Under the pieces are notes generated by a model. The model had not been told where the DNA came from. It did no database searches and saw only the letters and a list, made by a program, of their open reading frames with translations. The translations under genes and the position numbers were made by a program. A stretch of 64,000 nucleotides of DNA, taken from contig NC_012623.1 of the NCBI RefSeq assembly GCF_000022485.1, forward strand, positions 1 through 64,000. Reading direction: 5' to 3'. Below, one piece after another: positions 16,379-58,850 of the stretch (the stretch's first letter is position 1; every line of letters starts with the position of its first letter). Source of the stretch: Sulfolobus islandicus Y.N.15.51 (GTDB lineage: Archaea > Thermoproteota > Thermoprotei_A > Sulfolobales > Sulfolobaceae).

Positions 16379-16945
16379 TTATGATGAAATGCTTGTTATC
16401 ACATTAGCTATGGTTTTAAAGGCTAATCTACCATATGGGTAAATTGTTATTTTTAAATTTGAGATTTCAGCTGCCCTTTTGACTATTTCGTAGTGATGCC
16501 TAGGTAGTATACCTATTAACCTATTGTGTAACATACTTACTTTTATGAGGGGTTTCGTTAATAACATTATAAACTCTTCTTTCTCCTCTTTACTCATAAG
16601 TCTCGGCGGGTAATCATAATTATTAAAAGGATAGCATTCCTCTAATTCTTTAGGCACTAAAAGCATTGGTTCCGATACTGAATAGACTTGTACTTTTTCT
16701 TCTAAATTATATTTGTTTAATGTAGCATAGGCTATTTTGTGGGTTGGCGATAATGAATAAGGCTTAACTACTGTACAAGGCAATAGCAATCCAATTTCCT
16801 TGTCCGAATTCCAATTTTCCAGGAAATAGTGATGCCATCTCATTACTACTGGGTGTCTGAATAAATCATCCGTATTATCTTTTTTAGATATTCTAGTAAA
16901 ATCAGGCTTTAGATATTCATATAGTCGCTCGCATGCAGAGCTCAT
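16379..16945 (-). CDS. DUF5591 (ArcS-type) protein, C-terminal half of a split ArcS-like enzyme
   Basis: 188 residues. The motif LLLPCTVVKPYSLSPTHK (about 53-70) followed by MLLVPKELEECYPFNNYDYP is the DUF5591 signature, found in archaeosine synthase (ArcS/TgtA2) after its TGT-like domain. The PUA domain usual at the C-terminus of ArcS is missing. The start overlaps the end of the TGT-like gene by 29 bases, so the two products are probably subunits of one enzyme. In other archaea ArcS completes archaeosine at tRNA position 15. Other amidino-transfer enzymes serve this role in many crenarchaea, so the substrate here is open. Confidence 0.8.
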   Translation of the reverse strand: MSSACERLYEYLKPDFTRISKKDNTDDLFRHPVVMRWHHYFLENWNSDKEIGLLLPCTVVKPYSLSPTHKIAYATLNKYNLEEKVQVYSVSEPMLLVPKELEECYPFNNYDYPPRLMSKEEKEEFIMLLTKPLIKVSMLHNRLIGILPRHHYEIVKRAAEISNLKITIYPYGRLAFKTIANVITSISS

Positions 16946-17801
16946 TTACCTCTTCCTCTATCTCATCTTCTGGGAAACTATCTAGCTTTTTAGAATACTC
17001 TATTAATGGATTGTTAATCTCATATTCTGAATTTAAGAGTACCCAAGCATTAATTAGACTTCTATCTACCCAATTATCAAGTCTGATTGGAAACGGATAG
17101 TTTGTTCTATCTAAGAATGATAATAAAGTCTCTAATTCCTCTTCACTCGCTCTCCTAGTGCCCCAAACTATTTTTCTTTCACCAACATATCTTTCTCCTT
17201 TGCCGGGTATAATTACCATGCCATGTATTCCCTTGATTCTGTAGGTTGAGGTATCTACACTATTAGCGTTAAAGTAGACTTTTCTCATGAATGGTGATCC
17301 AGCTCCCAATACGTGAATTTTTCCTTTCCATAATTTTCTCACTAGATGATATATTGTAACTGCGAGTTTTTTGTTTCCACTTTTATTGAGGGTAGGAGGT
17401 ATAATTCCACCGAATGCCACTAGATCAGTATATTGGGAGTAGAAGTCTATGGACTTCTTTATTGATTCTACATCATAAGCGTGTATAACTGGTACTATTT
17501 TCTTATCAAAAACCGCGTACAGATACTCGAAGTATTTGTAATTTAATTCTGAAGGTTTATGACAAGGGTTTGACGGTATATCGAGGCTCATGTATTGTGT
17601 AGCATCTAAAATTTTATATTTCTCAACCACTTTTTCTATTTCAACCTTTATCCCTTTTACCATTATTTGATATCCTCCAGAGTCTACCCATGTCTCATTT
17701 TCCCAGGATAGATTATTCCAGTTTAGTTGGTTAACCATTAATGGTTGTTTAAACGTCCAAACTGGGATTTTCAAGTCAGGTATACCTAGTATTATCTTCA
17801 T
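16917..17801 (-). CDS. TGT-like (tRNA-guanine transglycosylase fold) protein, N-terminal half of a split ArcS-like enzyme
   Basis: 294 residues, much shorter than archaeal TGT (about 500-650). TGT hallmarks are present: WVDSGGYQIM with Asp 40, YMSLDIPSNP, LVAFGGIIPP, IHVLGAGSP and an Asp in the NANSVDTSTYR segment at the place of the nucleophile. The TGT zinc site (Cys-x-Cys-x2-Cys ... His) is not obvious. With the overlapping DUF5591 gene this reproduces the order of domains in ArcS, but as two proteins. A TATA box (gatataac on the minus strand, about 17828-17836) gives a leaderless start. A role in modifying DNA (like DpdA) instead of tRNA is possible because of the HerA/NurA neighbours, but speculative. 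Confidence 0.78.
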   Translation of the reverse strand: MKIILGIPDLKIPVWTFKQPLMVNQLNWNNLSWENETWVDSGGYQIMVKGIKVEIEKVVEKYKILDATQYMSLDIPSNPCHKPSELNYKYFEYLYAVFDKKIVPVIHAYDVESIKKSIDFYSQYTDLVAFGGIIPPTLNKSGNKKLAVTIYHLVRKLWKGKIHVLGAGSPFMRKVYFNANSVDTSTYRIKGIHGMVIIPGKGERYVGERKIVWGTRRASEEELETLLSFLDRTNYPFPIRLDNWVDRSLINAWVLLNSEYEINNPLIEYSKKLDSFPEDEIEEEVNELCMRATI

Positions 17802-17914: not shown

Positions 17915-17972
17915 TATATCAGGGAAACAACCCATCATCACGTTTCAGTTAAGGTTGGTTTCCTCATACATA
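17915..17972 (-). ncRNA. C/D box guide sRNA
   Basis: Textbook layout on the minus strand: C box ATGAGGA (17967-17961, one mismatch), 12-base guide aaccaaccttaa, D' box CTGA (17948-17945), 4-base spacer, C' box TGATGA (17940-17935), 12-base guide tgggttgtttcc, D box CTGA (17922-17919). Both guide spaces are exactly 12. The D guide is the exact complement of ggaaacaaccca, a strongly conserved 23S rRNA segment (from memory of rRNA sequences), so it probably directs 2'-O-methylation there. It lies between divergent genes. Confidence 0.85.
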
Positions 17973-18043
17973 ATAATCATTATTTTTAGTTACTATTATC
18001 AGTTACGCTTCAGTGACTGTTAGATATTAAACACCGGGTTATT

Positions 18044-18724
18044 GTGTCTAAAGGAGCAGAAATCCTTATATTGTTTACAGTATTTGTATTTACGCTAAAT
18101 ATTATTAGTAACGCATACGTAGTTAATGTAAAAATTTTAAGTCCCTTTCCGGTTACATTACTGTTTTCTGACTCCCATGGTGTCAAATTAGTTTCTTCCA
18201 ATCAAACTCTAAACGTCAATAGTTCAAATTTAAGGATTCAGGCTTTTGTTTTAGCCCCCTATTCCTATTCTATACTTATTAATGGCAATAATACTAATGA
18301 ATTAAACGTTAATCTGTCCAATTACTCTGAATTCAACCTCACAGTAATCGTTATTCCTAGTTATGCCTTTTTGAAAGTTGATGTAGTTGGAAAGGGTACA
18401 GTTTATATTGAATTAAATAATGGTACTATTATTGCAGTTAGGAACTCTTCTGTGGTTAAATTATATAATGGGTCTAACGTTCTTCTTGAGGCTAGTGGAG
18501 ATCTTCTTAATTGGTCAAATGGTGGTAATACCATGACTATTTGGTACACGGTTAATGGTAACTCAACAATTACAGCGTTTTTTGGTAATTCTAGTATTCT
18601 TCTAAAGTCTGGTACTGTTAAACCTATAGTAAATTACACAGAAGTAGGACTTAGTTTGTTTGCGATAGGATTTTTCGTATTATATAAAATATATTCTAGA
18701 AAAGACCAAGATACTAATGTTTGA
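18044..18724 (+). CDS. Asn/Ser-rich cell-surface protein, membrane-anchored
   Basis: 226 residues, GTG start at 18044. A hydrophobic N-terminal signal (about 6-28), an extracellular domain full of N-x-S/T sites and beta-strand repeats, and a C-terminal transmembrane helix (about 200-216) with a basic cytoplasmic tail are visible. This is the layout of Sulfolobus surface proteins that are N-glycosylated. No enzymatic motif was found. The stop TGA overlaps an upstream TTG of the next frame, but that gene most likely starts later. Confidence 0.8.
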   Translation: MSKGAEILILFTVFVFTLNIISNAYVVNVKILSPFPVTLLFSDSHGVKLVSSNQTLNVNSSNLRIQAFVLAPYSYSILINGNNTNELNVNLSNYSEFNLTVIVIPSYAFLKVDVVGKGTVYIELNNGTIIAVRNSSVVKLYNGSNVLLEASGDLLNWSNGGNTMTIWYTVNGNSTITAFFGNSSILLKSGTVKPIVNYTEVGLSLFAIGFFVLYKIYSRKDQDTNV

Positions 18725-18765
18725 TAACAAATTTTAAATGTGAACTCGTTACTAAAAATATTAGA

Positions 18766-20697
18766 ATGAATGAGAGATTAAGGAATTCTCAAAGTGGTTA
18801 TTTGAGGAAAGCGGTAAATCATCCAATAAATTGGTATACCTGGTCTAACGAAATATTTGAAATTGCGAAAAGGGAGGATAAGCCGATACTTATTGATGTA
18901 GGTGCTGCTTGGTGCCATTGGTGTAACGTTATGGATGAAGATACCTATTCAAACCCAGAAATAGTTAAGATAGTTAATGAAAATTTCATTCCAGTTAAGG
19001 TTGATCGAGATGAAATGCCCGATCTGGATAGACTTCTACAAAACGCAGCCATGGCCATAACAGGTGAGTCTGGGTGGCCTTTAACCATATTCATGACACC
19101 CGAGGGAAAGGTCTTCTTTGGTGGAACTTACTTTCCTCCAGAAGATAAGTATGGAAGAATAGGCTTTAAGAAATTATTGTTAGAGATTTTGAGAATATGG
19201 AGAGAAGACAGAAATCAAATATTCTCATCTTCAATAGACCCTAATATGCTAATTGCTAGGAATACTGGTGGAGTTCTAAGTTCAAGTGTTCTAGATGACA
19301 CGTTTTCCTATATAACATCCTATTTTGACATTGAGTATGGTGGATTAGGATTTGGCGCTAAATTTCCCCATCCTTTTGTGGATTTACTATTCCTCAACTA
19401 CAGTGCTACTAGAGGAGATGACTTAGGTAAAAAACTTGGTCTATTCACCTTAAGGAAAATGTATTATGGCGGGATTTTTGATCAGGTTGGTGGAGGATTT
19501 CATAGATATACTGTTGATAGAGAATGGAAGTTACCTCATTTTGAGAAACTACTTATAGATAATGCCGAATTGATTTACGATTATTTTACTTATTATACTG
19601 CAACTAATGACATAGAAATTCTTGATGCCTTAAGAAATTCAGTAGATTTTGTTTTAAGAGAACTATACATGGATGGGAAAGGTTTTGCTAATAGCTTAGA
19701 TGCAGATAGTGAAGGTATGGAGGGTAAGTACTATACGTGGACTGAGGATGAGCTTAAAGGTGCTTTAGGAAATGATTATGGTATTGCGATAAGGGTATTC
19801 GACCTAAAGAATACTGTAGAAGTTGAGGGCAGGAAAGTTCTATTGAGAACAACTGAACTTAGGGAGCTATCTAAGGTAACAGGTTTACAGGCAAATGAGA
19901 TAATAGAGAAGGTAAGTGAGATAAGGGCCAAACTATTGACGTATAGAGAGCAAAATAGGAAAATGCCATATAGAGATGATAGTACATACACTTATCCTAA
20001 CGCAAAGCTTACTGAATCTATACTGTTTTCCTCATTAATTTTAAACAAGGGTATTGAGGAGGCTAAGCTTGTTCTGAGTAAGTTAGGAAAAAGTGTTAGC
20101 AGGAGGTTAGATGGTGGAAAAGCTGGATTACCAGAAGATTATGCTGCAGCACTTTTAGCAAGTATCTCCGCATACGAGGTATTAAGTGAAGAAAAGTATT
20201 ATGATTTGGCAATTGAACTCGGTAGAAACATTGGAGGTATTAGGCCTAATAATTTCACTGACATGCCTAATGAGTCTGCAAATTCAATGTATATTAGGGC
20301 GTTATTCAAATTATCTCTATTATCTGATGAGTTTAAAGTTGATGAAGGGAAAATTAAACCTCTAATTCCCTCTCTAACCGCTGAAAATTCTCAATTTATT
20401 GCTGGGATAGTTAATACTATCTCGAGTTACATTAATGGTATGGCTCATATCGTAGTGGTTGATGAAAAGGACGGACTAGCTGAAAGACTGCATAGAACTG
20501 CGTTACTTACCTATTATCCCTTTAAATTAATTGAAAGGGTAGATGACAGTAGAACTGATTACGTTAGTTCAGTAATAAGGGCTATGATAAAATATAATGC
20601 GGGAAAGAGTAGAGCATATGTTTGTATAGGCAATACGTGTAGTATGCCAGTAAGTGAAGAGGAAAAGATTAAACAATTACTTAAAACTAAGCTTTAA
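18766..20697 (+). CDS. DUF255 thioredoxin-like / six-hairpin glycosidase-fold protein (YyaL family)
   Basis: 643 residues from ATG 18766. The frame is open to TTG 18721, but alignment with the family, which starts shortly before the NPVDWY-like segment (here HPINWYTW), favours the ATG. The N-terminal thioredoxin-like domain has GAAWCHWCNVM with Cys 50 and Cys 53. It is followed by GWPLTIFMTPEG and GGTYFPPED, then the large alpha/alpha barrel region (GGIFDQVGGGFHRYTVDREW, SLDADSEG). Members include human SPATA20 and bacterial YyaL; the reaction is unknown. It overlaps no other gene and is followed after 11 bp by an SDR gene. Confidence 0.93.
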   Translation: MNERLRNSQSGYLRKAVNHPINWYTWSNEIFEIAKREDKPILIDVGAAWCHWCNVMDEDTYSNPEIVKIVNENFIPVKVDRDEMPDLDRLLQNAAMAITGESGWPLTIFMTPEGKVFFGGTYFPPEDKYGRIGFKKLLLEILRIWREDRNQIFSSSIDPNMLIARNTGGVLSSSVLDDTFSYITSYFDIEYGGLGFGAKFPHPFVDLLFLNYSATRGDDLGKKLGLFTLRKMYYGGIFDQVGGGFHRYTVDREWKLPHFEKLLIDNAELIYDYFTYYTATNDIEILDALRNSVDFVLRELYMDGKGFANSLDADSEGMEGKYYTWTEDELKGALGNDYGIAIRVFDLKNTVEVEGRKVLLRTTELRELSKVTGLQANEIIEKVSEIRAKLLTYREQNRKMPYRDDSTYTYPNAKLTESILFSSLILNKGIEEAKLVLSKLGKSVSRRLDGGKAGLPEDYAAALLASISAYEVLSEEKYYDLAIELGRNIGGIRPNNFTDMPNESANSMYIRALFKLSLLSDEFKVDEGKIKPLIPSLTAENSQFIAGIVNTISSYINGMAHIVVVDEKDGLAERLHRTALLTYYPFKLIERVDDSRTDYVSSVIRAMIKYNAGKSRAYVCIGNTCSMPVSEEEKIKQLLKTKL

Positions 20698-58793: not shown

Positions 58794-58850
58794 TAGCGTG
58801 ATGAATAACTCCAATCCTGATCAATGATGTAGTAACTCGCGACTGAATTG
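58794..58850 (+). ncRNA. C/D box guide sRNA
   Basis: C box GTGATGA (58798-58804), 12-base guide ataactccaatc, D' box CTGA (58817-58820), 4-base spacer, C' box TGATGT (58825-58830, one mismatch), 12-base guide agtaactcgcga, D box CTGA (58843-58846). Both guide spaces are exactly 12, the spacing required for symmetrical archaeal C/D RNPs. A TATA-like attaaaattata (58758-58769) is at the right distance for its own promoter. It is in the gap between the ferritin-like gene and nnr. Targets of the two guides would be gattggagttat and tcgcgagttact. Confidence 0.85.

What the first reader, a model, noticed from the sequence alone, without database searches (positions are those of the whole stretch)
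17915..17972. C/D box sRNA with exact complement to a conserved 23S rRNA segment
All four boxes and two 12-base guides are present between the divergent genes at 17801 and 18044. The D guide is complementary over 12 bases to ggaaacaaccca, which I recall as a highly conserved 23S rRNA sequence. This is strong independent support for function.
Basis: partly seen in the sequence, partly recalled or inferred. Interest (0 to 1): 0.55.

Follow-up and report, generated by a model that had tools for sequence, protein, structure and literature searches.

The report
Two-target ribosomal RNA methylation guide RNA
This is a real but ordinary small guide RNA of a heat-loving archaeon: it is predicted to direct methylation of two neighbouring loops of the large ribosomal RNA, and its guides match changes in that ribosomal RNA in related species.

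Summary
The feature is real. On the minus strand, window 17967-17919 reads C box ATGAGGA, 12-nt D' guide, D' box CTGA, C' box GTGATGA, 12-nt D guide, D box CTGA. A relaxed C/D pattern matches only here in the window (0 in 200 shuffles). A model of the RNA finds strong matches in 27 of 31 family genomes.

The genome's own target is masked. The two readable 23S genes of its genus have GGAAACAGCCCA, giving one G:U; the exact string occurs in 2 of 11 family 23S genes read.

In 9 genomes examined with both RNAs, the +5 nucleotide pairs Watson-Crick at both sites; one D-guide base follows its rRNA partner in 9 of 9, and one D' pair differs on both sides in one genus.

Best reading: a canonical archaeal C/D box sRNA guiding 2'-O-methylation in two adjacent 23S hairpin loops (E. 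coli C961 and A981 equivalents). Transcript and methylation are untested. A new member of a known kind.

The parts
17919..17967 (-). C/D box sRNA core, C box to D box (49 nt)
   Evidence: Box pattern; model match G000:C1:17917-17970 minus, 66.3 bits, E 3.4e-18 (the model was built with this sequence)
17961..17967 (-). C box ATGAGGA
   Evidence: one base off RTGATGA
17949..17960 (-). D' guide AACCAACCTTAA; predicted to pair with 23S GTAAGGTTGGGT (9 consecutive Watson-Crick pairs against same-genus 23S); +5 nucleotide is C at 17953
17945..17948 (-). D' box CTGA
17935..17941 (-). C' box GTGATGA
17923..17934 (-). D guide TGGGTTGTTTCC; predicted to pair with 23S GGAAACAGCCCA of the genus (11 Watson-Crick pairs + 1 G:U); +5 nucleotide is U at 17927
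17919..17922 (-). D box CTGA
17993..18000 (-). Possible weak TATA-like element GATAATAG, 26-33 nt upstream of the C box
   Evidence: Picked by eye at the spacing seen in relatives; the word scan listed only TAAAAA at -21 for the window. Over 25 ortholog loci the genus-weighted A+T fraction is highest (0.91) at -28..-25, and TATA-like words start near -31..-28 in g11 (4 of 4), g10 (3 of 3), g6 (5 of 6), g3 (2 of 2), g2 (1 of 1), g9 (2 of 2) (no shuffled control)

Best explanation
A conventional archaeal double-guide C/D box sRNA. L7Ae, Nop5 and fibrillarin are inferred to assemble on its C/D and C'/D' kink-turns. The D' guide pairs with the loop and 3' strand of a 23S hairpin (helix 39, name recalled), and the D guide with the small hairpin just downstream (helix 40, name recalled). 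Fibrillarin then methylates the 2'-O of the nucleotide paired to the fifth guide base before each box: the last G of the GUAAG loop (position 1113 of the G015 23S; equivalent to E. coli C961) and the last A of GGGAAA (position 1133; E. coli A981). Shown here: anatomy, orthologs, register, pairing with relatives' 23S, sequence differences that keep pairing, and genes for the three proteins. Inferred: transcription, RNP assembly, methylation, and pairing with the window genome's own 23S, which is masked.
For: Boxes and guides, 0 of 200 shuffles. Strong matches in 27 of 31 family genomes at E 3.4e-10 or better; 17 of these 27 went into the model or equal a record that did, 10 did not. All four boxes and a 12-nt D' guide in 27 of 28 loci examined. 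Window guides against G015 23S: best site for each guide, 20 nt apart; joint shuffle test 0 of 3000. +5 pair Watson-Crick at both sites in 9 of 9 genomes examined; third base before the D box is T with rRNA A in 6 and C with rRNA G in 3; D' guide G with rRNA C, for A with U elsewhere, in 2 of 2 genomes of genus g3. Rfam LSU structure puts both predicted sites in hairpin loops. Fibrillarin 344 bits, Nop 262 bits, L7Ae-family 119 and 62 bits in the genome. A+T peak 25-28 nt upstream in relatives.
Against: Own 23S target masked. No expression or methylation data. The C box is off RTGATGA in 27 of 27 orthologs (one base in 24, two in 3), and the D box is CGGA or CAGA in 6 of 27. The same-genus D duplex has a G:U (7 consecutive Watson-Crick pairs inside the 12-nt guide), below the nine-consecutive-pair rule of PMC4644070, which that paper relaxes for double guides; only 4 of 9 relatives meet that rule at D. 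For G015's own D guide a different 23S site scores higher (35 against 33). Single-guide shuffles are weak for some relatives: G001 D 159 of 400 and D' 14 of 400, G026 D 31 of 400, G015 D' 6 of 400. No Rfam family reaches its cut-off here. The window's own TATA-like element is weak and picked by eye.
Confidence: 0.93

Rival explanations
1. An rRNA-folding chaperone first: by holding two neighbouring 23S hairpins at once, the sRNP delays or orders their folding, and methylation at one or both sites is secondary or absent in some lineages.
For: Targets are adjacent (12-nt stretches starting at 1109 and 1129); both guides are kept together in 27 of 28 loci; D boxes drift to CGGA/CAGA in 6 of 27 while pairing is kept, if weaker, in the 2 of those 6 whose 23S is readable (G015, G023). 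Chaperone roles of double guides are proposed in PMC4644070 (results section read).
Against: The +5 register is kept at both sites in 9 of 9 genomes, which pairing alone would not need. In G020 (genus g8) the D half is replaced while the D' half stays.
Confidence: 0.15
2. A DNA or RNA hairpin (the two guides are complementary to each other over 10 pairs with one bulge in the window), such as a terminator or regulator-binding site, that only resembles a C/D sRNA.
For: The window sequence folds better than most shuffles (z -2.8; 4 of 200 fold as well); 3 of the 10 pairs never vary.
Against: 0 pairs with a change on both sides, and pairing no higher than after shuffling 3' letters (82.7% against 81.9%, 120 of 500); four other orthologs fold with z -0.4 to -2.0. 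Two of the changes that break the hairpin (third base before the D box; second base of the D' guide) keep or improve pairing with rRNA; the last two bases before the D box break it without such gain.
Confidence: 0.02
3. A chance or decayed C/D-like sequence with no function.
For: C box is off consensus; no Rfam family above cut-off.
Against: Strong matches in 27 of 31 family genomes, 10 of the 28 loci checked having none of four window proteins nearby, with guide bases that follow rRNA.
Confidence: 0.02

Closest known systems
Archaeal C/D box sRNAs (double-guide type), as catalogued for seven archaea in PMC4644070, including 61 in Sulfolobus acidocaldarius
   Same: C/D and C'/D' boxes, 12-nt guides, +5 rule, two targets within 100 nt of 23S
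   Different: Nothing in kind.
Rfam sR48 (RF01132), snoPyro_CD (RF00095), sR17, sR3
   Same: Among the best Rfam matches along the whole length (25.1, 23.5, 19.6, 17 bits); box layout, and with sR48 part of the D' guide
   Different: All below the families' gathering scores (40, 45, 36, 41); in the two alignments printed (sR48, snoPyro_CD) the shared letters are mainly the boxes and the D guides differ
Rfam sR9 (RF01312), present elsewhere in this window (58794-58848)
   Same: Another C/D box sRNA of the same genome
   Different: Only 16.5 bits at this locus against a cut-off of 36

Membership tests
Archaeal C/D box sRNA | C (RUGAUGA), D' (CUGA), C' and D boxes in order | tested here: met
   but the C box deviates from RTGATGA in all 27 ortholog loci (one base in 24, two in 3)
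Archaeal C/D box sRNA | Two guides of about 12 nt between C/D' and C'/D | tested here: met
   12 and 12 nt; in orthologs D' is 12 nt in 27 of 27, D is 12 nt in 20 and 13 nt in 7 of 27
Archaeal C/D box sRNA | Guide-target pairing covering the +5 position in rRNA of the same genome | tested here: inconclusive
   Own 23S masked. Met in 9 of 9 relatives examined with both RNAs
Archaeal C/D box sRNA | At least nine consecutive Watson-Crick pairs (rule of PMC4644070) | tested here: inconclusive
   Against same-genus 23S: D' 9; D 7 in the 12-nt guide because of one G:U, with 4 more beyond it. D' is 9 or more in 9 of 9 relatives; D is 9 or more in 4 of 9. That paper relaxes the rule for double guides
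Double-guide sRNA | Two targets within 100 nt of the same rRNA | tested here: met
   Predicted sites 20 nt apart in G015 23S; both target stretches lie in one short 23S segment in all 11 family genomes read
Archaeal C/D box sRNP | L7Ae, Nop5, fibrillarin encoded in the genome | tested here: met
Archaeal C/D box sRNA | Transcribed as a stable ~50-60 nt RNA bound by the core proteins | not testable with these tools
   No RNA data; only a weak promoter inference
Archaeal C/D box sRNA | 2'-O-methylation at the predicted positions | not testable with these tools
   Needs RiboMeth-seq or primer extension
Rfam sR48 / snoPyro_CD | Score at or above the family's gathering threshold | tested here: not met
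   25.1 against 40; 23.5 against 45

The most novel reading that the evidence does not exclude
A family-wide C/D box sRNA whose main job is to chaperone folding of two adjacent 23S hairpins (helices 39 and 40): both guides co-evolve with the rRNA as a unit, and methylation at the D site is dispensable in lineages whose D box has drifted to CGGA or CAGA.
Probability: 0.15. Interest if true: 0.4.

Novelty: new member of a known kind. Interest (0 to 1): 0.22.

Why it matters
It adds a well-supported guide RNA, found across most of one archaeal family, that no Rfam family reached at its cut-off where tested, with two specific predicted 2'-O-methylation sites. Guide bases that follow rRNA differences across species are fairly direct sequence evidence that a predicted guide-target pair is used. 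The lineages with altered D boxes or a replaced D half give a natural comparison for separating methylation from pairing.

Tried and rejected
Rfam at gathering thresholds: no family at this locus; with relaxed thresholds only weak resemblance to sR48, snoPyro_CD and others. Ortholog loci of seven genomes: nothing above gathering.

Own 23S: the string GGGAAACAACCCA occurs in the held genome only at the sRNA itself, but that says nothing about the 23S, whose 5' part is masked.

Hairpin model: rejected, no compensating changes.

Matches outside the family: 37 of 166 other genomes of the order had weak matches (best E 1.0e-6). The two inspected (G109, G032) share boxes, not both guides, so I do not call them orthologs; the rest were not inspected.

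Named-genome pattern scan: 6 records, 5 with Sulfolobales names; the tool says that records near the window's genome may be left out. The five equal sequences also seen under G handles, so they are not counted again. The sixth (Methylococcaceae UBA659) lacks a D box in place and has a different guide end; I take it as chance.

Pairing table: 11 family genomes had a readable 23S target; 9 were used. G020 was dropped because its D half is replaced, and G021 because its sRNA match is partial and was not inspected.

Counting independent rRNA-guide changes: a 23S tree left the family backbone unresolved, so I give genomes, not events. In that tree two rows (G006, G017) lacked the left anchor; no count rests on them.

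16S, 5S, tRNA and mRNA targets were not searched.

Literature: a text search with guide letters listed 5 papers, none archaeal by title. For PMC4644070 I read the outline, the whole results section and the prediction-method section; for PMC7994747 the outline, part 1 of 2 of the target section, and the gene-evolution section. All other papers were seen only in listings; none was opened to look for a methylation map of these sites, so whether one is in print is open. Supplementary files could not be opened.

Full report
What is there. The window is G000:C1:1-64000 of a 2.85 Mb archaeal genome. The same RNA sits in records named Metallosphaera yellowstonensis, Metallosphaera javensis, Candidatus Aramenus sulfurataquae, Sulfolobus sp. 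UBA167 and Sulfolobales archaeon Acd1, whose copies equal ones under G handles of family f1, so I take f1 to be Sulfolobaceae (inference). On the minus strand, 17967-17919, the sequence reads ATGAGGA - AACCAACCTTAA - CTGA - AAC - GTGATGA - TGGGTTGTTTCC - CTGA. It lies between a minus-strand gene that starts at 17801, downstream of the sRNA on the same strand, and a plus-strand ORF at 18044. A relaxed C/D pattern, loosened to admit this C box, matches only this place in the window and never in 200 shuffles; a strict one matches nowhere. The relaxed pattern misses the sR9 sRNA at 58794.

Conservation. blastn found it in 13 of 31 family genomes. A sequence-only model (R1, built from 17 sequences) found it at E 3.4e-10 or better in 27 of 31. 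Of these 27, 17 went into the model or equal a named record that did, and 10 did not. The other four: G020 keeps the D' half with another D half, G021 has a partial match (E 1.5e-5), and G004 and G005 have only weak matches (8.8e-4, 0.0076). Of 28 loci put to a box pattern, 27 show all four boxes (G020 does not). In those 27, the D' box is CTGA in 26 and CCGA in one; the D box is CTGA in 21, CGGA in 4 and CAGA in 2; the C box is never RTGATGA (one base off in 24, two in 3). In genera g1, g3 and g10 (12 genomes) the TgtA-like gene of the window lies downstream on the same strand; in g11, g2, g7, g9 and g8 (10 loci) none of the four window proteins tested is found within the 1.5 kb flanks held; in g6 (6 loci) only one or both of the proteins on the other side are found. 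So the RNA is conserved beyond its gene neighbourhood.

Targets. The rRNA 5' part of the window genome is masked. Relatives were used instead. The 23S segment is GCGTAAGGTTGGGTGGCGAAAGGGAAACAGCCCAGA in the two readable genomes of the genus, and differs at a few bases in the other nine readable family genomes. The window's D guide pairs with GGAAACAGCCCA (11 Watson-Crick and one G:U); its D' guide pairs with GTAAGGTTGGGT (9 consecutive Watson-Crick pairs). Against the G015 23S each window guide has its best site here, with +5 nucleotides at 1113 and 1133, 20 nt apart. Single-guide shuffles reach the score in 2 (D) and 4 (D') of 400; the pair within 100 nt in 0 of 3000. With the guides of G026 on the same 23S it is 1 of 3000. 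The single-guide test is weaker for some relatives: G015's own D guide scores higher at another 23S site (35 against 33), and shuffles reach the top score in 159 (G001 D), 31 (G026 D), 14 (G001 D') and 6 (G015 D') of 400. Rfam's LSU model draws the D' target across a hairpin loop and its 3' strand, and the D target as a 3-pair hairpin with a 6-nt loop. E. coli rrlB has GGGAAACAACCC starting at 976, so the D site equals A981; the D' site corresponds to C961 in the alignment (numbering). The helix names 39 and 40 are recalled.

Guide bases that follow the rRNA. Of the 11 genomes with a readable target, nine were examined: G015, G016, G027, G001, G002, G003, G024, G026, G023; G020 and G021 were dropped (D half replaced; partial match not inspected). 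The +5 pair is Watson-Crick at both sites in 9 of 9. The third base before the D box is T where rRNA has A (6: g1, g3, g10) and C where rRNA has G (3: g11, g2, g9). In g3 (2 of 2) the rRNA D' target has C for U and the guide has G for A. Against this: in g1 and g10 the rRNA has G opposite a D-guide U, left as G:U, and the one or two guide bases next to the D box often do not pair. How many independent changes this represents is not known, because the tree backbone is unresolved.

Rival reading as a hairpin. The two guides are mutually complementary in the window. Across 15 distinct orthologs no pair changes on both sides, and the pairing percentage is that of shuffled columns. I take the mutual complementarity as a by-product of guides aimed at neighbouring rRNA stretches plus chance (inference).

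Machinery and expression. Fibrillarin and Nop5 genes lie side by side within 1372652-1374153, and two L7Ae-family genes are present. Upstream of the C box, the A+T fraction is highest at -28 to -25 over 25 ortholog loci, with TATA-like words starting at about -31 to -28 in six of seven genera; the two g7 loci did not fit the pattern of that script and were left out, and no shuffled control was run. In the window's own genus no such word stands at that spacing; GATAATAG was picked by eye. PMC7994747 reports that only 20% of archaeal C/D sRNA genes investigated had a TATA-like motif in the 50 nt upstream. No RNA data were available.

Comparison with what is known. PMC4644070 describes 489 archaeal C/D box sRNAs, about half of them double guides with targets within 100 nt. 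This RNA fits that class, with two reservations: the C box is off consensus, and the same-genus D duplex does not meet that paper's nine-consecutive-pair rule because of its G:U (the paper relaxes the rule for double guides). No Rfam family reached its cut-off in the window at this locus or in seven ortholog loci. I could not see whether its S. acidocaldarius ortholog is already listed, so I call it a new member of a known kind and do not claim that it is unpublished.

Verdict. The result is solid and ordinary.

Noticed in passing
window 58794-58848 (+): A second C/D box sRNA, Rfam sR9 (RF01312), 44 bits against a cut-off of 36.
   Followed up: no
window 16917-17801 (-) and 16379-16945 (-): Overlapping genes: one weakly like tRNA guanosine transglycosylase TgtA (TIGR00432, 19 bits against 350), the other like a fragment of archaeosine synthase alpha (PF17884 64.7 bits; NF040592 70.3 bits against 440). 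They may be a split archaeosine-synthase-type pair (the split reading is my inference).
   Followed up: partly
L095 (G020, genus g8): The D' half of the sRNA is conserved but the D half is a different sequence, as if one guide module had been swapped. The 23S D target is still present there.
   Followed up: no
L079, L086, L091, L092, L093, L094: All 6 orthologs with D box CGGA or CAGA have A at position 5 of the C box (recalled as the partner of D box position 2 in the kink-turn); of the 21 with CTGA, 17 have G and 4 have A there. Possible compensation within the kink-turn.
   Followed up: no
L081, L082, L084, L085, L090 (genus g6): The D guide is 13 nt with one extra base near the D box, which would shift the predicted methylation by one nucleotide; no readable 23S target was found for this genus.
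   Followed up: no
L003 1002-6001: The rRNA region of the window genome reads N up to about position 2146 of the 23S model, so own-genome rRNA targets cannot be checked here.
   Followed up: yes
window 18721-20697 (+): Thioredoxin-domain protein (PF03190, 214.6 bits) that is found near the sRNA in all g1, g3 and g10 loci (12) and 5 of 6 g6 loci.
   Followed up: no
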